Shown: in pieces, positions 9,086 through 54,974 of the stretch | How positions within the stretch are numbered: the stretch's first letter is position 1 | Layout of the letters: each line of letters opens with the position of its first letter | Virus record (IMG/VR): IMGVR_UViG_3300005613_000051 | Coordinates: 1-64,000 of that record | DNA from: a virus | DNA: 64,000 nt | Strand: one strand, 5' to 3' | Made by a program: the position numbers and the translations under genes | Notes under the pieces: generated by a model | Database searches by the model: none | What the model was told of the DNA's origin: nothing | Seen by the model: the letters and a program-made list of their open reading frames with translations, nothing else

Positions 9086-9277
9086 ATGAGTATTTTAGAA
9101 AAAAATAAAGAATTAAAAGCATCAATTGAACAAATGACTATTGAAGAAAAAGCTATTAAAGCTAGAATAAATGAGCTTAAAAATTTAATTGAAGAGAAAA
9201 AAAGAAAAACTGTAGCATTAGATGCTGCAAAAAAAGAAGAAGCTGCTTTACTAAAAGAGTTAGAAAGCTTGATGTAA
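9086..9277 (+). CDS. Small coiled-coil protein
   Basis: This 63-residue protein is almost wholly predicted helix with heptad spacing of Leu, Ile and Ala and alternating Glu/Lys (for example IKARINELKNLIEEKK). It starts after CGGAG on the mRNA and ends just before a strong stem-loop, so it closes the collagen/fibre subcluster. A trimeric or dimeric coiled coil that aids fibre assembly is plausible. No family was recognised. Confidence 0.65.
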   Translation: MSILEKNKELKASIEQMTIEEKAIKARINELKNLIEEKKRKTVALDAAKKEEAALLKELESLM

Positions 9278-9290
9278 TATTTCTTTTGAA

Positions 9291-9324
9291 ATAAATGAAG
9301 GGGATTTTTATCCCCTTCATTTAT
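9291..9324 (+). terminator. Strong stem-loop (15-bp stem) after the fibre subcluster
   Basis: The arms ATAAATGAAGGGGAT and ATCCCCTTCATTTAT are perfectly complementary and enclose a TTTT loop. It lies 14 bp after the stop of the coiled-coil gene and 33 bp before the next ATG. There is no T-run directly after the stem, so it may act as a processing or stabilising hairpin or as an imperfect terminator that attenuates downstream genes. Confidence 0.65.
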
Positions 9325-9356
9325 ATACTTTAGAGATTTATATTTAGGGACAGTAC

Positions 9357-10226
9357 ATGGCTAAGGAATTTTATCAGCTCATTCGTAGTTTTGGTGGTTT
9401 GTCTCTAGAGTATTCTTCTATCAGCGAATCAGATTTTGCTGAATCCTCTGGAACAGCGTACACTCCACCAGAAAGAGGCGATTATAGACGAATTACAGGA
9501 TCAAGAGAAATACAATTACTCTCGGATGCTCCTGGTGTAATTGAAACTTTTCAGACATCTGCATCTGGGGATTTATTTCTTCCAGCAAATACTGTAGCAG
9601 ATAACACAAATGATGCTGGAAATGGTCGACTTTTCTTTGTAAAAAATTCAGGAACTCAAGATTTAGGAATAAAAGATTACTTAGGTAATTCTTTACAAGT
9701 AATGCCTGCAGATACTGTTGTCATAGCTGTTGGAAATGAAGCTAATAACTGGGATATTTATTTTAAAGCAGATGATATTTATTTTGATAATTCTATATTA
9801 AATTGGCCTATATCAGAGGATACTGTACAAAAAGCTATTGAGTATACATATAGTAATGCCACAGGAAACATTAAGCCAAGATTTACATTAACCTTAATTA
9901 ATAATGGTACTGTAAGTAATAATCAATGGATAACTTTTTCGGAACTTACTCCAGATGTCTGGATTCAATTTCCTTTAGATTGTGAAATAAAAGAATTTAC
10001 GTTTGATAATTCACGTTCTAACACTAGTTTTGATTTAGAATTTTATAAAAATTCTACAGTGGGTGCTCCTTATCGAACACTTTCCATCGTAACAACACAA
10101 TATGGTTATTATAGTGGTTGGTCAGATAGTTTTAATGCTGGGGATAGATTAAGAATTAGGTATACTGATCAAGGAGTAAACGCTAGTGACTTGGTTTGTG
10201 TACTTTATTGTGTAGCAAGGGTATAG
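9357..10226 (+). CDS. Tail/fibre structural protein with a shared C-terminal beta module
   Basis: This 289-residue protein has an N-terminal half that includes a beta-rich segment (DLFLPANTVADNTND to NNWDIYFKADD) of the sort found in fibre-like proteins. Its last about 115 residues align by eye with the C-terminus of the 197-residue protein two genes downstream: a (R)F-x-(L/I) opening, NN-x-W-(I/L)-(T/S), a Cys, LEFYKN and a later AGDRLRI/AGDTFKV strand. This implies duplication of a tip domain. The ribosome binding site is weak (AGGGA). It lies at the head of a five-gene run of related small fibre proteins. Function beyond virion structure is not indicated. Confidence 0.65.
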   Translation: MAKEFYQLIRSFGGLSLEYSSISESDFAESSGTAYTPPERGDYRRITGSREIQLLSDAPGVIETFQTSASGDLFLPANTVADNTNDAGNGRLFFVKNSGTQDLGIKDYLGNSLQVMPADTVVIAVGNEANNWDIYFKADDIYFDNSILNWPISEDTVQKAIEYTYSNATGNIKPRFTLTLINNGTVSNNQWITFSELTPDVWIQFPLDCEIKEFTFDNSRSNTSFDLEFYKNSTVGAPYRTLSIVTTQYGYYSGWSDSFNAGDRLRIRYTDQGVNASDLVCVLYCVARV

Positions 10227-10230
10227 GAAT

Positions 10231-11793
10231 ATGGATATTCTTATAAAAATTTTAAAGAATAATAGTGGTGCTCCTTTAGAACTTTTAGGAGTTTCAGATA
10301 TAGCTCATGGTGAGCAAATAGAAGTAAACCCTAGTAAATGGATTGAATTAATTGAAAGAGTAGAAATTCATGATTTGGTAGCTTCTGGGGACATCATCGT
10401 TAATGATGGTGTAAGTGATTTAAATATTGATGCTGCTTTAAGACATATTAAGAAATTGTTTGTTGATTATGCTCCATTAACAAAAGATCCTACTGGTTTT
10501 GAAAATCTAGAATATTCAAGTATATCTTTTAATGATAGCAATAGCACATTTTCTATTACTCCTACTAATGCTTCTGGTTTTGACTTTTATATAAGAGGTG
10601 TTCGTTATAATAAATCCTCAACAGATAACTTAGTTCTTCCGGATATTGAAGGCAATTTTCATATTTTTTATAATATGTCTGGAATTTTAAGTTATAGTGA
10701 AGGAATTGAACATGATGATGCAAACACTGAAACCGCTTCTATTGCAGACCTCTATTGGGATTCTACTAATAAAAAAGCAATTAATCTGTGTGAAGAAAGA
10801 CACGGTGTTTCTATGCCTTGGGCAACACATCGTAGATTTTCGGATATAGAGGGTTTACAAGTATCCGTTGGTGACTTTGAAGCTATAAACACCACTCCCA
10901 ATGGAGATGGTTCCTTGGATATTCATGCTCAAATGGGCTTTACCGAGGGAAGTATTTACGATGGGGGTTTACTACACCATGTTGTTACTTCTTCTACCCC
11001 AACCCTTCCTTTTGAACAAAGACTTCAAACTTATGCATATATTCCTTTATATTATATAGAGGGGAGTGGAACTATTAAATGGCGAAAATTAGAAGCTACC
11101 CCTTTCCCGATGGCTTGGGATGCGGGTAATCTAGTTAGATATAACTACTGGAATGGTTCTACTTGGTCTTTAGCTAATGCTGATGAAGGTTCTGTGCTTT
11201 GCACCTATATATTGGCTACGAATAACATACATGAACCTATTATTGGGTTGGTTGGCCAAGCTAAAAGTACTAATTTAATTCAAGCTTTGGAAGAAAACAG
11301 GCATAAAGATTTAGAACTTAATAATTTTCCTTTTGATGATTATCTCTTTTTAAGTAGAATATTCTTTGATACTAAAAATTCTTACACTAATCAACCAAAA
11401 GCATCTAATCTTATCCCTGCTGATTTAATTTATGGAATTGAAAATCCTGATAGATATGCTTTTCAGGGACAAATTAATGGTAATGCAGGGATAGGAAAAT
11501 ACTTAGAATTATTCTGGGGTATTGATTCTAATGAAGCTCCTTTTATTTTTCCAGAAAATTCATATATGAGAACAATTACCCTACATACTTCTGCACTTAG
11601 CACTGGAACTATAGGATTTTTTAATACCTTGGATTTAGTAAATCCTATTTTTGAATTATCTATGACTAATCAAGATAATCAAAGATATAATGTGTCCTAT
11701 TATTTTTATGCAGGAGACGAAATTTGTATGAGAATAACTGCAGGAAGTTTTCAAAAACCAACTTTAAGAATATGGATTCAAACTGATTTGTAA
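10231..11793 (+). CDS. Tail/fibre structural protein, 520 residues
   Basis: The N-terminal about 80 residues (LELLGVSDIAHGEQIEVNP, then a DIIVNDG segment and an AALRHI helix) match in layout the N-termini of the following 197-, 337- and 327-residue proteins. They probably form a common virion-docking domain. The centre contains aromatic, Asp- and Asn-rich beta segments. The C-terminus ends in a strand-rich domain with FYAGDEICMRI, resembling the AGDRLRI strand of the preceding protein. AAGGG lies 9 nt before the start and the spacing to the upstream stop is 4 bp, indicating an operon. It is probably a side fibre or baseplate decoration. Confidence 0.65.
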   Translation: MDILIKILKNNSGAPLELLGVSDIAHGEQIEVNPSKWIELIERVEIHDLVASGDIIVNDGVSDLNIDAALRHIKKLFVDYAPLTKDPTGFENLEYSSISFNDSNSTFSITPTNASGFDFYIRGVRYNKSSTDNLVLPDIEGNFHIFYNMSGILSYSEGIEHDDANTETASIADLYWDSTNKKAINLCEERHGVSMPWATHRRFSDIEGLQVSVGDFEAINTTPNGDGSLDIHAQMGFTEGSIYDGGLLHHVVTSSTPTLPFEQRLQTYAYIPLYYIEGSGTIKWRKLEATPFPMAWDAGNLVRYNYWNGSTWSLANADEGSVLCTYILATNNIHEPIIGLVGQAKSTNLIQALEENRHKDLELNNFPFDDYLFLSRIFFDTKNSYTNQPKASNLIPADLIYGIENPDRYAFQGQINGNAGIGKYLELFWGIDSNEAPFIFPENSYMRTITLHTSALSTGTIGFFNTLDLVNPIFELSMTNQDNQRYNVSYYFYAGDEICMRITAGSFQKPTLRIWIQTDL

Positions 11794-41787: not shown

Positions 41788-42357
41788 ATGCCTTTTACTT
41801 TTGAGAAATTAAGTTTAGAAGAAGTAATTTTAGTCACCCCAAAAGTATTTGGAGATGACAGAGGTTTCTTTTTAGAAACATATAAAACCAGTGATTTTTA
41901 TGCTGGTGGAATAAAAGAAATTTTTACTCAGGATAATCATTCTTATTCTTCTTCTTCTTTTTCAACAAAAAAAGTATTGAGGGGAATTCATTTTCAGAAT
42001 CATCCTAAACCCCAGGGTAAATTAGTAAGATGTATTCAGGGAACTATTTATGATGTTGCTGTAGATTTAAGACCCAATTCTAACTCATTTATGAAATGGG
42101 TAGGAGTAGAGCTTAATAGTAAAAATCATCAAATGTTGTATATTCCACCAGGATTTGGACATGGTTTTTCTACATTAAGTTATGAAGCTGAGATAGTATA
42201 TAAATGTACTAATGAATATGATTTTCATTTAGATAGTGGAATTACTTGGGATGACCCTGACTTAGGAATTGATTGGAAAATTAAGGATCCTCTTATTTCT
42301 GAAAAAGATGCTAAACTTCCTACACTAAAGGAGTACTTAAATGGAAATAACAATTGA
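41788..42357 (+). CDS. rfbC: dTDP-4-dehydrorhamnose 3,5-epimerase-like protein (RmlC family)
   Basis: This 189-residue protein matches the RmlC cupin fold. The substrate-binding arm is FGDDRGFFLETYK, the catalytic His68 lies in LRGIHFQ, PQGKLVRCIQGTIYDVAVDLR follows, and the IPPGFGHGF and VYKCTNEY strands carry further active-site residues. The C-terminal ITWDDPDLGIDW is also typical. The enzyme makes dTDP-L-rhamnose precursors. No rfbA, rfbB or rfbD genes are seen near, so it probably acts with host enzymes, changing O-antigen sugars or supplying a sugar for DNA or protein decoration. The last 17 bp overlap the radical SAM gene. Confidence 0.9.
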   Translation: MPFTFEKLSLEEVILVTPKVFGDDRGFFLETYKTSDFYAGGIKEIFTQDNHSYSSSSFSTKKVLRGIHFQNHPKPQGKLVRCIQGTIYDVAVDLRPNSNSFMKWVGVELNSKNHQMLYIPPGFGHGFSTLSYEAEIVYKCTNEYDFHLDSGITWDDPDLGIDWKIKDPLISEKDAKLPTLKEYLNGNNN

Positions 42358-42844
42358 AATTACTCAATTCTGTGAACATGACTGTTTTTACTGTTCCTCT
42401 AAAGCTTCTCCACAGGGAAAACATTTAGATATTAAATATATTGAAACATGGTTACGGGAATTAAAAGAAGACCCCGATATAATAAACATTTCAGGAGGAG
42501 AGCCTCTATCTCATCCTAATTTTTATCAAATTTTAAATCTTTGTAAAAAATATACTAAAGATGTGAGAGTATATACTAATGCTTTGAGTTATATTATATA
42601 TAATACTGATATTGTTCAGGAAATAAAACTTGAAGCGAATGTATGCTTAACCCCAGGAAATAGATATATCCCATCTAATGCTGATAATGTTCGCCTATTA
42701 AAATTGGTACCTAAAGGAAGAGGCAAAGATATTAAACCTGTAAATATCACTTTTTCTGGTAAGGATTGTAAAGATTGTAATCATTCTGTCTTACAAGCAG
42801 ATGGTAAAACAGTTAAAGCTCCTTGTAAAAAGAGTTATGATTAA
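42341..42844 (+). CDS. Small radical SAM protein
   Basis: This 167-residue protein has the CEHDCFYC motif (Cys11, Cys15, Cys18) that binds the 4Fe-4S cluster, and ISGGEPL, the SAM-binding GGE element. It is shorter than most radical SAM enzymes, about the size of a minimal QueE-like or activase-like core. The C-terminal end has a CKDC pair (143, 146) and Cys162, a possible second cluster. AAGGAG lies inside the end of the epimerase gene. It is followed by a Cys-rich protein. The substrate is unknown; nucleotide or peptide modification is possible. Confidence 0.82.
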   Translation: MEITIEITQFCEHDCFYCSSKASPQGKHLDIKYIETWLRELKEDPDIINISGGEPLSHPNFYQILNLCKKYTKDVRVYTNALSYIIYNTDIVQEIKLEANVCLTPGNRYIPSNADNVRLLKLVPKGRGKDIKPVNITFSGKDCKDCNHSVLQADGKTVKAPCKKSYD

Positions 42845-43295
42845 AAAAGTTATACCCGTAATTGATTATTCCGTCAGGGGTTTATGTGCTAAGAGTTATC
42901 CTAATCATCCAAAGGGATGCCCTAACTTTAATAAACGCAAGGAATGCCCACCTAAAGCTAAATTGATTGACCAAATTTTAGATTTAGAAAAACCCATATA
43001 TTGCATCGTAAATAAGTTTGATTTTAAAAAACATACAGATAAAATGAGAAACAGACATCCTGAATGGTCAGAGCGTCAAATAGAATGTTGCTTATATTGG
43101 CAAGGAACCGCTAGAAAACAACTCCGTGAAAAAATAAAAATTTTTTCAATAGAAAAACCAGAATATAAGATATTGACTTGTCCAGAGGCATGTGGGGTAA
43201 ATGTTACTGCAACAGTAAAAAAATTGGGTATAGTACTTGAATGGTCTCCCAAAAAATGGGTCTATCAGGTAGCTTTAGCTGGAATAGAGCTTTAA
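42837..43295 (+). CDS. Cys-rich metal-binding protein (DUF2284-like)
   Basis: The 152-residue product begins at the ATG overlapping the end of the radical SAM gene by 8 bp. An earlier in-frame ATG at 42801 has no ribosome binding site and would add a Lys-rich tail. Cys17, Cys28 and Cys37 lie in RGLCAKSYPNHPKGCPNF and KECPPKA. QIECCLYWQG and LTCPEACG add four more, enough for one or two Fe-S or Zn sites. The CPP motif and layout recall DUF2284-type proteins. Coupling to the radical SAM gene suggests they work together, perhaps as electron donor or scaffold. The function is unproven. Confidence 0.65.
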   Translation: MIKKVIPVIDYSVRGLCAKSYPNHPKGCPNFNKRKECPPKAKLIDQILDLEKPIYCIVNKFDFKKHTDKMRNRHPEWSERQIECCLYWQGTARKQLREKIKIFSIEKPEYKILTCPEACGVNVTATVKKLGIVLEWSPKKWVYQVALAGIEL

Positions 43296-43720
43296 CTTAG
43301 ATAAGCTAAAATCTCAAAAGTTTTATCCTTAACAACATCTGTTACCTTTTTTTCATGAAGCAAATGCCAGGAAAAAGCTATTAAACTATTCTTTATTTCT
43401 ACTGGGGAATAAGGATCTTTATGTTTTTTTCTAGCAATATGAAGTTCTATTCTTCCTTTATCTTCTCTAAATTTATCTGAACTGGTAACTTCATCTAATT
43501 CCAAACCATTATCAGCTAAAATTTCATTAATTTTACTAATACCCTGATCTATTTTTTTAAAACGACCATTTCCGTCTAAACCAGCTTTTTTAAACTCTTC
43601 ATTTATTTTTTTTCTTTCTTTGGGTTTTATTTTATCAGGCTTATGATCCTCGGTAATAAAGTCTATAGATTTTAATCCAAGTTTAGTCATGGTTTTAGCT
43701 ATGATTTTTGATCTTTTCAT
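43292..43720 (-). CDS. Unknown helical protein downstream of the nuclease-methyltransferase
   Basis: This 142-residue basic protein is predicted helical in its N-terminal half (Lys-rich, with IKPKERKKINEEFKKAG), followed by SKINEILADNGLELDEV and a strand (RIELHIARKK). Its stop codon shares the TTAA sequence with the stop of the convergent Cys-rich gene. It lies 24 bp downstream of the repeat/nuclease/methyltransferase gene on the same strand and has a TATAAATA box just upstream. It may be an accessory of that system, or an unrelated late gene. No family was recognised. Confidence 0.55.
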   Translation of the reverse strand: MKRSKIIAKTMTKLGLKSIDFITEDHKPDKIKPKERKKINEEFKKAGLDGNGRFKKIDQGISKINEILADNGLELDEVTSSDKFREDKGRIELHIARKKHKDPYSPVEIKNSLIAFSWHLLHEKKVTDVVKDKTFEILAYLS

Positions 43721-43735
43721 TAGTTTACCTATTGA

Positions 43736-43743
43736 TATTTATA
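43736..43743 (-). promoter_or_regulatory. TATAAATA box just upstream of the 142-residue gene
   Basis: The minus strand reads the exact T4 late promoter consensus 15 nt before the ATG, so a transcript would have a leader of only a few bases. It lies between the two minus-strand genes and may give the small gene its own late expression. The spacing differs from the 70-80 nt seen at other sites, so support is weaker. Confidence 0.3.
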
Positions 43744-43744
43744 T

Positions 43745-46024
43745 TTATTTTAATTTAAATATTAATAGATTCTCACCTTTAGTAAATGTTTTTCTTGTTC
43801 TCTGAAAATGATTTAAAGAATTATGACCCACGGGTATTTCTTCTAAAAAAATTAATTTTTCTTGAATACAGATACTTTTCATATCTTCTTTATACCTATT
43901 ATTAACTACAAAAGAAAAATAATGAGGATTCTTCTTTAAACAATTACAAATTATTTTTCGCCACCATACATTTAACCAAGATTTATAAGTAGGATACTTT
44001 AAGGTTGATGTCTCATCTCCGTCATATAACTCAGTATCAAAATAAGGTGGACAAGTAAATACAGCATCAAAATATTCTTTAGGAATAAAATCCTCAGCAG
44101 GATTATTATAAAAATATTTATTTTGCATTTTAAAATACTCTGCTATAGCTTTATTTCCTTGATAGGTTTCTAGGCAAATATCATTACCTATATAAGTAAT
44201 GTTCTTAGCTCCTAGAAGTCTATGCCCCCAACCCATGCAAGGATCATAAATTGATTTTATATTATATTTTTCAATAAAAGCTTTAATCCAAAAAGGACTA
44301 AAAAAAGAATACCCTATATGAATTCCAGATATCTTAAATCCCTGAAGATACTGCTTTATCGAAATTTTAAATTTATCTTTAACTTTATACTTTTCCCTAT
44401 TTGCTACTAGTCTTTCTCGGATTATGGGGTTATTCCAAAGTTCTCTTTCCTTTCTATAAAAGTGAGGTTGAAAATGTTCTATAATCTTATTCTGATAGGG
44501 ATTTTTTGAAAAATCCCCAGGTAATTTAGTAATTCTTTTATATTCTTTTTGAAGAGTTCTTTCTGAATAGGATAGGGGTAATCCTTGTTTTAAGAGTAAA
44601 AAAGTTAACCAATCTGGACCAAGTTCTATGTCTGACATCCAAATTTCTAAATAGTTTAAGCAATATTGAGATGCATAAATTCGTTTTAAAGGATCACTCT
44701 CTGTATATACTTTTAAAGCATTCTTATAATGTTCAGATATTTCTGCTTTTTTCTTCCAATTATCTAAAAATTCTTTATCGGGAGTATAAGGTTCTTTACC
44801 ATGACTCCAATATCCTTGTAACTCAATAAAACAGTCATTCTTAGCAATATAAAAATCACATGCAAAAGGATAACGAGGATCTTCATTATATTGTCGCTCA
44901 ATATCTTTTTCCAAAAGCTGTTCTAGTAAGGACCAAATTAGAAAATATAAGTCATCTTCAATTTTTGAAGTACCATAAGTTCCATTATCTAGTTTTGTTT
45001 GATGAATCTTATCTTGAATTTCTTTAGATTGTGCTGGATATTTCACCCCATATCTTTTTAAACTAGTCTGAATAATTTTATCTTGAATTTCTTTAGATTG
45101 TCTTGGATATTTCACCCCATATCTTTTTAAACTAGTCTGAATAATTTTATCTTGAATTTCTTTAGATTGTCTTGGATATTCCACCCCATATCTTTTTAGA
45201 AAAGTTTTTCTTATTTTATCTTTAACTTCTTCAGATTGAAAAACATAGTTAACACCATATTTTTTTAAGCAAGTTTTTTTAGAAGCTTCTTTAAAAGGAG
45301 AGAAATGTTGAGGATTTTCTACTCCATATTTTTTTAAATTAGTTTGTTTTGTTTTTTCTTTAATGAGGTTAGATTTTGTAGGATGATCATACCCAAATCT
45401 ATTCATATTAGTTTCTTTAAATTTTTCTTTTAGAATATCAGATTGCAGAGGATATTCACAGCCATAGCGTTTTATCATTGTTTTTTTTATTTTTGCACTA
45501 AGCTGCTCTGAGCTAAATGCTCCTATAGCACCATATTTCTTTATAAAAGAATTCTGAGTTTTCTTTTGAATTTTTTTAGATTCTAAAGGATATTCTACAT
45601 GGTATCTCTCTAAATTAGTCTTTTTAATTTTATTCTTTATTTCTTCGGAATAAATTGGATTAGAAACACCGTATCTCTTTAGATTAGTTTTTTTAATTTT
45701 ATTTTTGATTTCTTCATTTTCTAAGGGAGATTTACTTTGAAATTTTTTTAAACAAGTTTGGGTTTGTTTTTCTTTGACCCAAGGAAGTTTTGCTACGTTA
45801 GAAACACCGTACTTTTTTTGTACTGTTTTTTGGCAATTTTCAATTCTTCGCTTAATATCTTTTTGAATTTTATGTTTTTTAAGATATCTTTTGACTGTAG
45901 TTTTACCTACCGCTAGGTCCTTAGCTATGTCTGTGCCTGTCTTATTTAATATTATATATTCCTGATATAGCCAGGAAAAGCTATCCAATTTTTTTAGAAT
46001 ATTAGAATTAAATTTTTTAACCAC
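43745..46024 (-). CDS. Fusion of HTH, twelve 23-residue repeats, PD-(D/E)XK-like nuclease and DNA methyltransferase
   Basis: This 759-residue protein has four parts. Residues 14-50 look like a helix-turn-helix (GTDIAKDLAVGKTTVKRYL). Residues 65-340 are twelve gapless 23-residue repeats with core K-T-N-L-K-R-Y-G-V and end Q-S-x-E-I. A nuclease-like part follows, with Glu356, Asp390 in FACDFYI and Glu401 in FIELQG, then SHG. Residues 560-759 are a methyltransferase with DPCMGWG (motif I, 594) and TCPPY (motif IV, 657). This order suits DNA recognition, cleavage and self-protection in one chain. The start is GTG without a clear ribosome binding site. It lies alone between + strand metabolic and - strand baseplate genes. 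A homing endonuclease or restriction-modification role is inferred; no target is known. Confidence 0.82.
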   Translation of the reverse strand: MVKKFNSNILKKLDSFSWLYQEYIILNKTGTDIAKDLAVGKTTVKRYLKKHKIQKDIKRRIENCQKTVQKKYGVSNVAKLPWVKEKQTQTCLKKFQSKSPLENEEIKNKIKKTNLKRYGVSNPIYSEEIKNKIKKTNLERYHVEYPLESKKIQKKTQNSFIKKYGAIGAFSSEQLSAKIKKTMIKRYGCEYPLQSDILKEKFKETNMNRFGYDHPTKSNLIKEKTKQTNLKKYGVENPQHFSPFKEASKKTCLKKYGVNYVFQSEEVKDKIRKTFLKRYGVEYPRQSKEIQDKIIQTSLKRYGVKYPRQSKEIQDKIIQTSLKRYGVKYPAQSKEIQDKIHQTKLDNGTYGTSKIEDDLYFLIWSLLEQLLEKDIERQYNEDPRYPFACDFYIAKNDCFIELQGYWSHGKEPYTPDKEFLDNWKKKAEISEHYKNALKVYTESDPLKRIYASQYCLNYLEIWMSDIELGPDWLTFLLLKQGLPLSYSERTLQKEYKRITKLPGDFSKNPYQNKIIEHFQPHFYRKERELWNNPIIRERLVANREKYKVKDKFKISIKQYLQGFKISGIHIGYSFFSPFWIKAFIEKYNIKSIYDPCMGWGHRLLGAKNITYIGNDICLETYQGNKAIAEYFKMQNKYFYNNPAEDFIPKEYFDAVFTCPPYFDTELYDGDETSTLKYPTYKSWLNVWWRKIICNCLKKNPHYFSFVVNNRYKEDMKSICIQEKLIFLEEIPVGHNSLNHFQRTRKTFTKGENLLIFKLK
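45013..45219. repeat. 69-bp tandem DNA repeat encoding protein repeats 9-11
   Basis: Three units of exactly 69 bp lie head to tail inside the fusion gene. The first two differ at only two bases; the third matches over its first two-thirds and then diverges. One unit encodes one 23-residue repeat. The near identity shows very recent duplication or gene conversion, in contrast with the other nine repeats, which differ greatly in sequence. Confidence 0.9.
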
Positions 46025-46070
46025 AACATCTTGCGTAAAAGTAGTCTTCTTCTACACTAAGCAGTATAGA

Positions 46071-46685
46071 TTACATTGTCAATCTGAAAATAACACTTAA
46101 TGTTGCGGTATTAGGTTTATTGATTACTTGAATTGTTCGATAATTGATTAAGTTATCTTTTGCTTCATCAATCACATTTTCCTCTGCGTCACCCCCGTAT
46201 AATCCCAATTCCATGATAGGACCAACCGCTTCAGATTCCGAAAAAACGGTTTGAAAATCAATAATATTAGTTATCTCTGTCGCAGGTAGTCCAGAACCAT
46301 CAGTTTTTACAAAATTGACATTAGCAAATCTTTTTCTTGCTAATTCAGCTTCAAGTTTTGTTTGAGTAGTTGTAGCCACAGGTGGATTTTGAGGATCCCA
46401 AGAAGAGTGTCCAGTTCCCACAGCTAGAACCCAGATACCGTGAGCAGGACCTACTGGATCTAAAGTAGTTTGTCCATCTGCTAAAAGACGAGCAATAAGT
46501 AATGAGGCTGAATCTACTATAACATTTTGGTAATATTTTTCAACTTTACCGTCATTATGATTTAAAATAAGAAAGAATTCACCTTTCATTTTACTTCTAT
46601 TATTTTCTTCATATTTTGTACCAAAACTCATTCTTCCACTAGTTTCTGATGTTTTCTTTAAAACTTCCTTGTTAATATTTGCCAT
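46071..46685 (-). CDS. Virion structural protein, baseplate/tail region
   Basis: This 204-residue protein has a layout common in large myoviruses: NVIVDSASLLIARLLADGQ, then IWVLAVGTG, PPVATTTQTKLEAELARKRF and a VGPIMELGLYGGDA turn, with NYRTIQVINKPNTATLSV at the C-terminus. Such proteins accompany baseplate wedge genes; the role is probably structural. GGAGG precedes the ATG. It is the last gene of the minus-strand baseplate operon, with 56 bp between it and the larger gene upstream. Confidence 0.7.
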   Translation of the reverse strand: MANINKEVLKKTSETSGRMSFGTKYEENNRSKMKGEFFLILNHNDGKVEKYYQNVIVDSASLLIARLLADGQTTLDPVGPAHGIWVLAVGTGHSSWDPQNPPVATTTQTKLEAELARKRFANVNFVKTDGSGLPATEITNIIDFQTVFSESEAVGPIMELGLYGGDAEENVIDEAKDNLINYRTIQVINKPNTATLSVIFRLTM

Positions 46686-53033: not shown

Positions 53034-54974
53034 TTAAAATAGACAGTTATGAAGAATACCATGTAAATCATCAGGATCTAGAATTTGTATTCCATAATCC
53101 TGAGCTTTTTTTATTTTAGAAGTGGTGCTATTTTTATTTTTTACTACTAAATAATCTAGCTTTTTGCTTACCCCAGAAGCAATTCTACCACCTTTTGCTT
53201 TGATATTTTTTTCTAAAGAATCATCACGAAATCCTGAAAAACAAAAGCTTTTATCAGTTAGGGCACCTTCTATTTTCTTTTTTATATTAACATATTTTAA
53301 AATTTCTTTAATCAAGGGAGCTTTAGCTTTTAGACCAGTCACAATAAAAGTAGCTAGTTTTATTTCAAAACCCTCAATATTAACTATATCCTTAATTTTT
53401 AATGCTAGGATATGTTCTAAATCTCCAAAGTTATCTTCAAGGATTTCTGCTCTTTTTACAGAAAGAGACCTAATATTTAAGCCTGAAAGTAGTTCTGAAA
53501 CAGTAATTACTGTTTTACTGTTTATTTCTTTTAAAATTTTGGTAGCATTTTTAATGCCCTGTCTATCTAGTTCTGCAATATCTTCTATTTTTAATTTATA
53601 AAAATCAGGAATAGATTTAAGTTTTCCAGCATCTATGAGAGCTTCCACAAGTTTTTCACCCATGTTCTTTAAACCTAATACATTTAACCAGTGTAATAAA
53701 GCTTTAGCTACTCTGGCACCACAATATTCATTTCGACAATAATAAATAGTATCTTCTTTTTCTAAAATAGAAGCACAAACTGGACATTTTTTAGGTCTCT
53801 TTATTGGGGTACTATATTCATTTTTTCTAATTACCTTAGTAATCTTTGGAATAACATCTTTACTCCTAATTACCTGAATAATATCTCCTGCTTCTATGCC
53901 TAAACGATCTATTTCATCATAATTATGTAGTGTTGCTTTAGATATAAGAGTTCCACCACAAAGAACAGGGTCAAGTATTGCTAGGGGAGTGATTGCTCCA
54001 GTTCTTCCTACTTGAGAAACTACTTGCAATAATTCTGTTTCTGCTTTTTCAGCTTCAAATTTAAATTTTCTTGCATATTCGGGGAATAATTCATTATCTG
54101 TAATTTCAGTTTGTCTTGAAATATTATCAATATTTACTACTAGACCATCAATCAAATAATCCAATTTTTCTCTAACTCCTTCTTCATATTTTTTATGGAG
54201 AGCTAGAAGAGTTTGTAATCCAGTTGTATAGTATCTAGGGGTTTGAAGATTTAAATCTTTTTTTATAAAATCTAAAATTTGTGTTTCGGAATCAAAAGTT
54301 ATTATGTAATGTGAGTTTTTTGAATAAGCTTTATAGAAAAAGATATCCAAATGCTCACAACCTTCCCCATTCTTTCTTTTAGTAATACCCACAGCAGCGT
54401 TTCTTTCATTTGCCATTTCTGGAAAATATTCTAATTTTATTGATTTTCTTAGGGCAATCTCTCCTCGGGTATAACCACTAAAAGCAATTGGTAATCTTTC
54501 AGGAATGTTTCTCATCTTTTTTACATTTTCAGTAATATCATCTCCCTCAAAACCATCTCCACGAGTCAAGGCTTGTATTAGATATCCCTGTTCCCACTCT
54601 ACGGAAACTGAGAGTCCATCTATTTTTTCACTAGTACAGAAAACATCTTCTTTAGCATTTTTATCAACCCATTTTTTTATATCAGCAGTTACGTCTATAG
54701 TAGTGTCAAATTCTATTAAAGACCCCATGGGGATACTATGAGCTGCTTTTGAAAAACCCTTTAAAGTATTTTTGGTTCCTATTTGGAATTTTTCTTTATA
54801 AGTATCTTGATAAAGTTTTTTAACAAAATCAAATTCATCATCTGATATAAAAGATTCTTGGGTATAATAAGAATCTGCAGCTTTAGTCAAAAAAGAGAAT
54901 ACTTCTTCTTTTTTTAAATTTTCAATATCCCAAAGCATTAATTTTTTATAAGTTATTTTATCCTGAAGATCCAT
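53034..54974 (-). CDS. ligA: NAD-dependent DNA ligase
   Basis: This 646-residue enzyme seals nicks with NAD as adenylate donor. The adenylation domain has the catalytic Lys117 in EKIDGLSV and the upstream HSIPMGSL element. Domain order is complete: OB fold (about 315-395), zinc finger with Cys397, 400, 413 and 418, helix-hairpin-helix region (about 425-560, with LNVLGLKNMG) and a BRCT domain (from about 570, GALTDKSFCFSGF). The N-terminal Ia domain is shortened but recognisable. Jumbo phages often carry this type, unlike the ATP ligase of T4. GAGG precedes the ATG, 1 bp from the HD gene, so it is the last gene of the repair operon. Confidence 0.95.
   Translation of the reverse strand: MDLQDKITYKKLMLWDIENLKKEEVFSFLTKAADSYYTQESFISDDEFDFVKKLYQDTYKEKFQIGTKNTLKGFSKAAHSIPMGSLIEFDTTIDVTADIKKWVDKNAKEDVFCTSEKIDGLSVSVEWEQGYLIQALTRGDGFEGDDITENVKKMRNIPERLPIAFSGYTRGEIALRKSIKLEYFPEMANERNAAVGITKRKNGEGCEHLDIFFYKAYSKNSHYIITFDSETQILDFIKKDLNLQTPRYYTTGLQTLLALHKKYEEGVREKLDYLIDGLVVNIDNISRQTEITDNELFPEYARKFKFEAEKAETELLQVVSQVGRTGAITPLAILDPVLCGGTLISKATLHNYDEIDRLGIEAGDIIQVIRSKDVIPKITKVIRKNEYSTPIKRPKKCPVCASILEKEDTIYYCRNEYCGARVAKALLHWLNVLGLKNMGEKLVEALIDAGKLKSIPDFYKLKIEDIAELDRQGIKNATKILKEINSKTVITVSELLSGLNIRSLSVKRAEILEDNFGDLEHILALKIKDIVNIEGFEIKLATFIVTGLKAKAPLIKEILKYVNIKKKIEGALTDKSFCFSGFRDDSLEKNIKAKGGRIASGVSKKLDYLVVKNKNSTTSKIKKAQDYGIQILDPDDLHGILHNCLF

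What the first reader, a model, noticed from the sequence alone, without database searches (positions are those of the whole stretch)
43745..46024. Single-chain repeat-array nuclease-methyltransferase: a possible self-protecting sequence-reading system
One protein joins an HTH-like segment, twelve gapless 23-residue repeats, a PD-(D/E)XK-like core (Glu356, Asp390, Glu401-x-Gln403) and a complete-looking DNA methyltransferase (DPCMGWG, TCPPY). Nuclease plus methyltransferase in one chain is known for type IIG restriction enzymes. There, however, specificity comes from a C-terminal recognition domain; here the only obvious recognition part is an N-terminal tandem array. Each repeat has a constant core (YGV, then QS-x-EI) and variable positions, as expected if each unit reads a fixed DNA step. 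The gene stands alone between unrelated clusters, as homing genes do. The Gln in place of Lys in the nuclease motif is a known variant but could also mean altered activity.
Basis: partly seen in the sequence, partly recalled or inferred. Interest (0 to 1): 0.88.

Follow-up and report, generated by a model that had tools for sequence, protein, structure and literature searches.

The report
Homing nuclease fused to DNA methyltransferase
A large phage carries a mobile "homing" gene whose single protein is predicted both to cut and to chemically mark DNA; many other phages have the same pairing built from different cutters, usually right behind their coat or tail-sheath gene, as expected if the mark protects the carrier's own conserved gene from its own cutter.

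Summary
Window 43745-46024 (-) is one 759-aa ORF: weak HTH-like start, twelve gapless 23-aa repeats (72-347), a nuclease (353-467) and an amino-methyltransferase (MTase, 478-759). Repeats plus nuclease are a DUF7487, Vsr-type (EDxHD) homing endonuclease: E356, D390, H408 and D444 are invariant, and Foldseek picks Vsr. The MTase models confidently (pLDDT 89) as a class I enzyme.

The protein is not a singleton. About 48 viral loci join this MTase family to homing nucleases of several kinds (Vsr/EDxHD, HNH, LAGLIDADG, other PD-(D/E)XK). In 37 of 47 other loci the module starts within about 210 bp behind a major-capsid or tail-sheath gene; standalone MTases sit by replication genes (1 of 45). In the window it follows a predicted virion/baseplate gene instead. 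Two relatives (70-76% nt) lack the gene at this site, and their records give no other match. In one allele pair the repeat array differs while the MTase is 98-100% identical.

Best explanation: a free-standing homing gene whose array steers both cutting and marking, so the carrier's intact target is spared. Composition and mobility are well supported; self-protection is inferred. Mom-nuclease fusions with the same logic were already predicted, so this is a new variant of a known kind.

The parts
43745..46024 (-). Homing endonuclease-methyltransferase fusion gene, 759 aa, GTG start
45851..45946 (-). HTH-like segment, residues 27-58 (weak)
   Evidence: Pfam HTH hits below cutoff; PHROG HNH-endonuclease N-terminus E=5e-5
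44984..45811 (-). Twelve gapless 23-residue DUF7487 repeats, residues 72-347; presumed DNA-binding array
   Evidence: DUF7487 E=7.5e-75; mostly helical but low-confidence model
44624..44968 (-). Vsr-type (EDxHD) nuclease, residues 353-467; E356, D390, H408, D444 invariant
   Evidence: alignment A4; Foldseek Vsr 1cw0 and 1vsr, prob 0.99, TM 0.50/0.48 to target, E 0.11/0.24; block pLDDT about 71-88
43748..44593 (-). Class I amino-methyltransferase domain, residues 478-759, including a helical N-terminal extension shared with standalone relatives
44225..44245 (-). AdoMet-binding motif I, DPCMGWG, residues 594-600
44039..44056 (-). Catalytic motif IV, TCPPYF, residues 657-662
43721..46070 (-). Segment present here and absent in relatives L152 and L153 (empty site)
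   Evidence: no match to the fusion elsewhere in those two records
46071..46685 (-). Upstream flanking gene, predicted virion/baseplate protein; the analogue of the capsid/sheath neighbour in other fusions
   Evidence: Pfam BW3TFN E=5.5e-6, just under cutoff; PHROG 5417 E=1.4e-23 and 1394 virion structural protein E=5e-5
43292..43720 (-). Downstream flanking gene, 142 aa, unknown function; adjacent to the baseplate-like gene in L152 and L153

Best explanation
A free-standing phage homing gene whose product is a single-chain cutter and marker. The N-terminal HTH/DUF7487 array binds a long target, probably in or near a neighbouring conserved virion gene; the Vsr/EDxHD nuclease breaks unmarked copies in co-infecting phages, whose repair copies in the homing gene; the fused amino-methyltransferase marks the same target in the carrier. 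Homing genes that interrupt their own target site need no such protection; one that sits beside an intact target gene would. Shown by sequence: domain make-up, empty site, recurrence, placement, array exchange. Inferred: DNA as MTase substrate, shared target, protection, homing.
For: Domains. Recurrence: the same MTase family is joined to Vsr/EDxHD, HNH, LAGLIDADG and other PD-(D/E)XK nucleases; on an 81-row tree fused versus not fused needs at least 5 changes and architecture at least 12, and the window's own fully supported 15-row clade mixes Vsr (10), HNH (3), standalone (1) and nuclease-less (1). Mobility as a unit: relatives L152 and L153 have the flanking genes adjacent, without HEN or MTase, and no match elsewhere in their records. 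Placement: 35 of 47 fused ORFs plus 2 split modules begin within about 210 bp behind a capsid or sheath gene, against 1 of 45 standalone MTases with such a gene anywhere in the locus; standalone ones lie by helicase, primase and clamp-loader genes. Array exchange: L110 and L111 share about 92% DNA identity in flanks and in the nuclease-MTase part, MTase 98-100% aa with dN/dS 0.03, while the array differs. Split pair: in L105 a Vsr homing endonuclease ORF and a nuclease-less MTase ORF overlap and share a homologous N-terminal DNA-binding region (36% over 146 aa, E=1e-23). Parallel: the C-terminal domain of a Vsr-type homing endonuclease (L010) matches Mom-like DNA modification proteins, E=2.6e-9; jumbo-phage Mom domains fused to REase-fold nucleases were predicted to protect phage DNA while the nuclease attacks competitors (PMC7824862).
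Against: No methylation, cleavage or homing data exist here for any member. A shared target for nuclease and MTase is shown for none. Standalone MTases have the same N-terminal extension, so the MTase may have its own specificity. The window's neighbour is a virion/baseplate gene, not capsid or sheath. In clade B (L005, L156-L160) motif IV reads TSIPY, so some fused MTases may be altered or inactive. A Mom-bearing homing endonuclease (L010) follows what looks like a 5' fragment of a DNA polymerase gene, a site where modification should not be needed if that gene is interrupted. The Mom relation reaches significance for one of two domains tested. M463 could start a separate MTase product.
Confidence: 0.6

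Rival explanations
1. Phage R-M-like weapon without homing: the fusion cuts the DNA of superinfecting phages or the host and the MTase protects the carrier, but the gene does not move by homing. This is the view published for Mom-REase fusions.
For: PMC7824862 proposes this for Mom-REase fusions; nuclease and MTase in one chain works like Type IIG (PMC4081073).
Against: Arrays and nucleases are homing-endonuclease families; the gene is absent at this site in relatives; the placement behind conserved virion genes resembles homing genes, which are reported near essential phage genes (PMC10448857).
Confidence: 0.2
2. Hitch-hiking: the MTase serves general phage DNA modification or anti-restriction and a homing gene became fused to it; the two parts do not share a target.
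For: The MTase family is common as a standalone phage gene; PADLOC Type II MTase and MADS mad2 models match members.
Against: The whole unit, MTase included, is missing at the empty site; fused MTases sit beside virion genes and standalone ones beside replication genes; nuclease type changes while the fusion persists; the nuclease-less MTase of L105 keeps a DNA-binding region homologous to that of its partner nuclease.
Confidence: 0.13
3. Decayed or regulatory protein: the nuclease is inactive and the array targets the MTase, or simply binds DNA.
For: Homing genes often decay (background knowledge); nuclease-less forms exist (L105, L109); the first half of the protein models poorly.
Against: All four EDxHD residues are intact; L105 and L109 have a separate nuclease ORF directly upstream; the N-terminal, pre-MTase and MTase parts are under purifying selection in L098/L099 and the L170 group.
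Confidence: 0.07

Closest known systems
EDxHD (Vsr-type) homing endonucleases, e.g. I-Bth0305I; PHROG 559, 3339, 12131
   Same: Vsr-type nuclease with E, D, H, D residues; elongated array of DNA-binding units; phage gene. PHROG 559 is reported as a VSR-superfamily intron-encoded endonuclease (PMC11878797).
   Different: Nuclease is in the middle and followed by a methyltransferase; free-standing in an intergenic site, no intron or intein seen.
Mom domains fused to REase-fold nucleases in jumbo phages (PMC7824862)
   Same: Nuclease and DNA-modifying enzyme in one chain; Vsr-type homing endonuclease L010 carries a Mom-like C-terminal domain in the place of our MTase.
   Different: The modifying enzyme is an unrelated amino-methyltransferase; the nuclease part varies over several classes.
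Type IIG restriction-modification enzymes (e.g. MmeI, BcgI, BpuSI)
   Same: Cleavage and methylation in one chain, presumed to share one specificity module; specificity part exchanges while catalytic parts stay (L110/L111).
   Different: N-terminal homing-type array instead of a C-terminal or separate S module; Vsr nuclease; T(C/S)PPY rather than the gamma-class NPPY motif; carried by a phage beside a virion gene.
Standalone phage amino-MTases (PHROG 12517, 498) and ParB-MTase proteins
   Same: Same MTase domain, including the N-terminal extension in the standalone ones.
   Different: No nuclease; replication-gene neighbourhoods.

Membership tests
EDxHD (Vsr-type) homing endonucleases | E, D, H, D catalytic residues in a Vsr-like fold | tested here: met
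   E356, D390, H408, D444 invariant in ten homologues; Foldseek Vsr prob 0.99 but E 0.11-0.24 on a moderate-confidence model
EDxHD (Vsr-type) homing endonucleases | Array of modular DNA-binding units from homing-endonuclease families | tested here: met
   DUF7487 E=7.5e-75; PHROG 12131 and 3339
EDxHD (Vsr-type) homing endonucleases | Gene is a mobile insertion with an empty counterpart | tested here: met
   L152 and L153 have the flanking genes adjacent without it; direction, gain here or loss there, is not shown
EDxHD (Vsr-type) homing endonucleases | Specific cleavage of the empty allele and homing | not testable with these tools
   needs purified protein and mixed infections
Type IIG restriction-modification enzymes | Nuclease and methyltransferase in one chain | tested here: met
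Type IIG restriction-modification enzymes | Gamma-class MTase with N-P-P-Y/F/W motif | tested here: not met
   motif is TCPPYF; family T(S/C)PPY; class description from PMC4081073
Type IIG restriction-modification enzymes | C-terminal or separate S (specificity) module | tested here: not met
   no domain follows the MTase; the array is N-terminal and of homing type
Type IIG restriction-modification enzymes | Both activities at one recognition sequence | not testable with these tools
   array exchange with a constant MTase in L110/L111 fits it but does not show it
Mom-nuclease fusions | Mom-like GNAT modifying domain | tested here: not met
   C-terminal domain is a class I methyltransferase

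The most novel reading that the evidence does not exclude
A distinct class of self-immune homing endonucleases: mobile genes that carry their own site-specific DNA-marking enzyme and can therefore live beside, and repeatedly attack, the most conserved virion genes without needing an intron, intein or altered site; assembled several times from different nucleases, with array exchange re-targeting cutting and marking together.
Probability: 0.5. Interest if true: 0.85.

Novelty: new variant of a known kind. Interest (0 to 1): 0.7.

Why it matters
It joins two fields that are usually separate, homing genes and restriction-modification, and offers a testable answer to how a free-standing homing gene can target a conserved gene that its carrier keeps intact. 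If right, phages hold a large reservoir of long-site nuclease-methyltransferases whose specificity changes by array exchange, and capsid and sheath genes would be sites of epigenetically policed gene conversion. The Mom-nuclease parallel suggests that adding a modifying enzyme to a homing nuclease is a general solution.

Tried and rejected
Closest relatives of the nuclease-linker region alone: none in viral or genome collections; MTase subfamily in bacterial genomes: none found. Solved-structure sequence search: nothing above noise. Type IIG membership rejected on motif and module order. Direct hhalign of two homing-endonuclease C-terminal domains with Mu Mom was not significant (P=0.096); the PHROG scan was, for one of the two. 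My label 'sheath' for the neighbours of five PD-(D/E)XK fusions rests only on a sub-threshold Pfam hit (E=0.03) and is not counted among the 35. An earlier Fisher test that counted them was replaced. A search for papers naming DUF7487 gave none; the full-text searches found no paper describing homing endonuclease-methyltransferase fusions, but most subscription journals are not held. The 2009 paper on Vsr-like homing endonucleases that I recall was not held. Neighbour control: the capsid/sheath models were built from neighbours of the fused loci, so unrelated capsid families near standalone MTases could be missed; the independent PHROG scan shows mainly replication genes there, with one head protease.

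Full report
What is there. The window is most of a 68.8-kb IMG/VR virus record. ORF 43745-46024 (-) encodes 759 aa from a GTG. Residues 72-347 are twelve gapless 23-mers (lag-23 identity 46.6%, shuffled maximum 15.4%; repeats 10 and 11 are 99% identical in DNA). Pfam calls the array DUF7487 and PHROGs call the N-terminal half homing endonuclease. Conserved positions in the repeat are Y1, G2, P6, S9, K15 and T19; positions 4, 5, 7, 8, 10, 11, 14, 17 and 20 vary. That pattern suits a scaffold with variable contacts, but no DNA code can be read from it.

Nuclease. In alignment A4 the invariant residues include E356, D390, H408 and D444, which is the E-D-H-D set of the EDxHD homing endonucleases (family named in PMC3943268; the residue match to Vsr is from general knowledge). 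The model of residues 1-480 is poor overall (pLDDT 64) but better over the nuclease (about 71-88), and the only plausible globular match in the PDB is Vsr (1cw0, 1vsr; prob 0.99, E 0.11-0.24). In four phages (Lak-A1, Lak-B5, Lak-C1 and LR756500) the same array-nuclease module occurs without an MTase; in L010 and L013 the homing ORF directly follows a DNA polymerase reading frame that appears to stop early.

Methyltransferase. Residues 478-759 belong to a phage amino-MTase family with motifs DPCxG(W/F/Y)G and T(S/C)PPY(F/W/Y). The model is confident (pLDDT 89, pTM 0.87) and matches class I MTases: Trm11, METTL5, HsdM. This does not fix the substrate; DNA is inferred from the fusion partners and from Type II MTase models hit by relatives.

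Not a singleton. Scans with MTase alignments found about 48 viral loci, the window included, in which this MTase is joined to homing-type modules (ORFs): zinc-finger/DUF7487 plus Vsr (e.g. L095, L102, L108, L110, L157), HTH plus Vsr (L094), HNH (L096, L098), LAGLIDADG (L170 and about 16 others), zinc-finger plus an ExHG-type PD-(D/E)XK (L165 group), and homing-associated HNH repeats plus PD-(D/E)XK (L162, L163). Pfam and PHROGs support representatives; Vsr and PD-(D/E)XK labels of the others are by motif and eye. On an 81-row tree (quick method, some long branches) fused versus unfused needs at least 5 changes and architecture at least 12; the window's clade (15 rows, full support) holds Vsr 10, HNH 3, one standalone and one nuclease-less member.

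Mobility. Relatives L152 and L153 (70-76% nt identity over the neighbourhood) have the baseplate-like gene and the 142-aa gene side by side, with 60 and 124 bp between them, where the window has the fusion. A search of those two records (192.7 and 42.4 kb) found no match; the same search finds the gene in the window's own record. So nuclease and MTase are present or absent together. Gain here and loss there cannot be told apart.

Placement. For 47 other fused loci, 35 have a major capsid or tail sheath gene ending within about 210 bp upstream, and 2 more (L105, L109) have it just before a two-ORF nuclease + MTase module; five have a large protein that may be a sheath; the rest are at contig edges or unclear. 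Of 45 standalone MTase loci one has such a gene anywhere in the locus, and their upstream genes are mainly helicases, primases and clamp loaders. Fisher p is about 5e-14, but the loci are related, so the p-value overstates independence; at least four combinations of MTase clade and neighbour family are involved. The window fits loosely: its neighbour is a predicted virion/baseplate protein.

One target for both activities? Three hints. (a) L110 and L111, from one sample and behind the same sheath gene, are about 92% identical in DNA in flanks and in the nuclease-MTase part; their MTases are 98-100% identical in protein over most of their length (dN/dS 0.03), while the arrays differ. (b) In L105 the nuclease and the MTase are separate, overlapping ORFs, and both carry a homologous zinc-finger/repeat N-terminus (36% over 146 aa, E=1e-23). 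In L109 the same split occurs, but homology of the two DNA-binding parts was not detected by BLAST. (c) In L010 a Mom-like DNA-modifying domain (E=2.6e-9) stands where the MTase stands here. Iyer and colleagues (PMC7824862) already described jumbo-phage Mom domains fused to REase-fold nucleases and proposed protection of self and attack on others; what seems new here is the unrelated methyltransferase, the range of homing nucleases, the site behind virion genes and the array exchange.

Mechanism. A homing gene inside its own target site is safe from its own cutter. A free-standing gene beside an intact conserved gene is not, unless the site differs or is marked. The data fit marking: a fused modifier, placement beside virion genes that stay intact, and array exchange that would re-target both activities. 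Cleavage, methylation, shared target and homing all remain untested.

Limits. Arrays and the first 350 residues model poorly. Some fused MTases (clade B) have TSIPY instead of TSPPY. Standalone MTases share the N-terminal extension, so MTase specificity may be partly its own. An internal start at M463 is possible. The literature search covers open-access papers only.

Noticed in passing
L010:2749-4692; L005:77-1612: Vsr-type homing endonucleases without MTase carry a C-terminal GNAT-like domain; L010's matches Mom-like DNA modification proteins (E=2.6e-9), L005's only homing-endonuclease profiles and a weak acetyltransferase hit. L005 also has a Vsr-MTase fusion as the next gene.
   Followed up: partly
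L105:3488-5759; L109:2465-4694: Nuclease and methyltransferase encoded as two overlapping ORFs behind a major capsid gene, like a two-gene R-M system made of homing parts.
   Followed up: partly
L010:1334-2752; L013:1307-2854: DNA polymerase reading frame ends early, directly followed by a homing endonuclease ORF, at what looks like the same position in two phages; possible fractured gene, intron or intein.
   Followed up: no
L005, L156, L157, L158, L160: One MTase subclade has TSIPY(F/Y) instead of TSPPYF in motif IV; activity may be altered.
   Followed up: no
window 42341-43295: Radical SAM ORF and DUF2284-like ORF overlap; the relative L153 has the dTDP-sugar epimerase directly after the 142-aa gene, so this segment also looks like an insertion.
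   Followed up: no
L152:9123-12412: The corresponding place in L152 holds a collagen-like repeat protein and a subtilisin-like protease; the region after the 142-aa gene is variable.
   Followed up: no
window 53034-54974: NAD-dependent DNA ligase gene inside the minus-strand cluster with baseplate genes.
   Followed up: no
L180:1903-2868: An ORF with homing-endonuclease-like HTH ends lies between the capsid gene and the LAGLIDADG-MTase fusion.
   Followed up: no
L105:6362-8344, 9113-10438: Further homing endonuclease-like ORFs, one with the Mom-like type of C-terminus by eye, in the same contig stretch.
   Followed up: no
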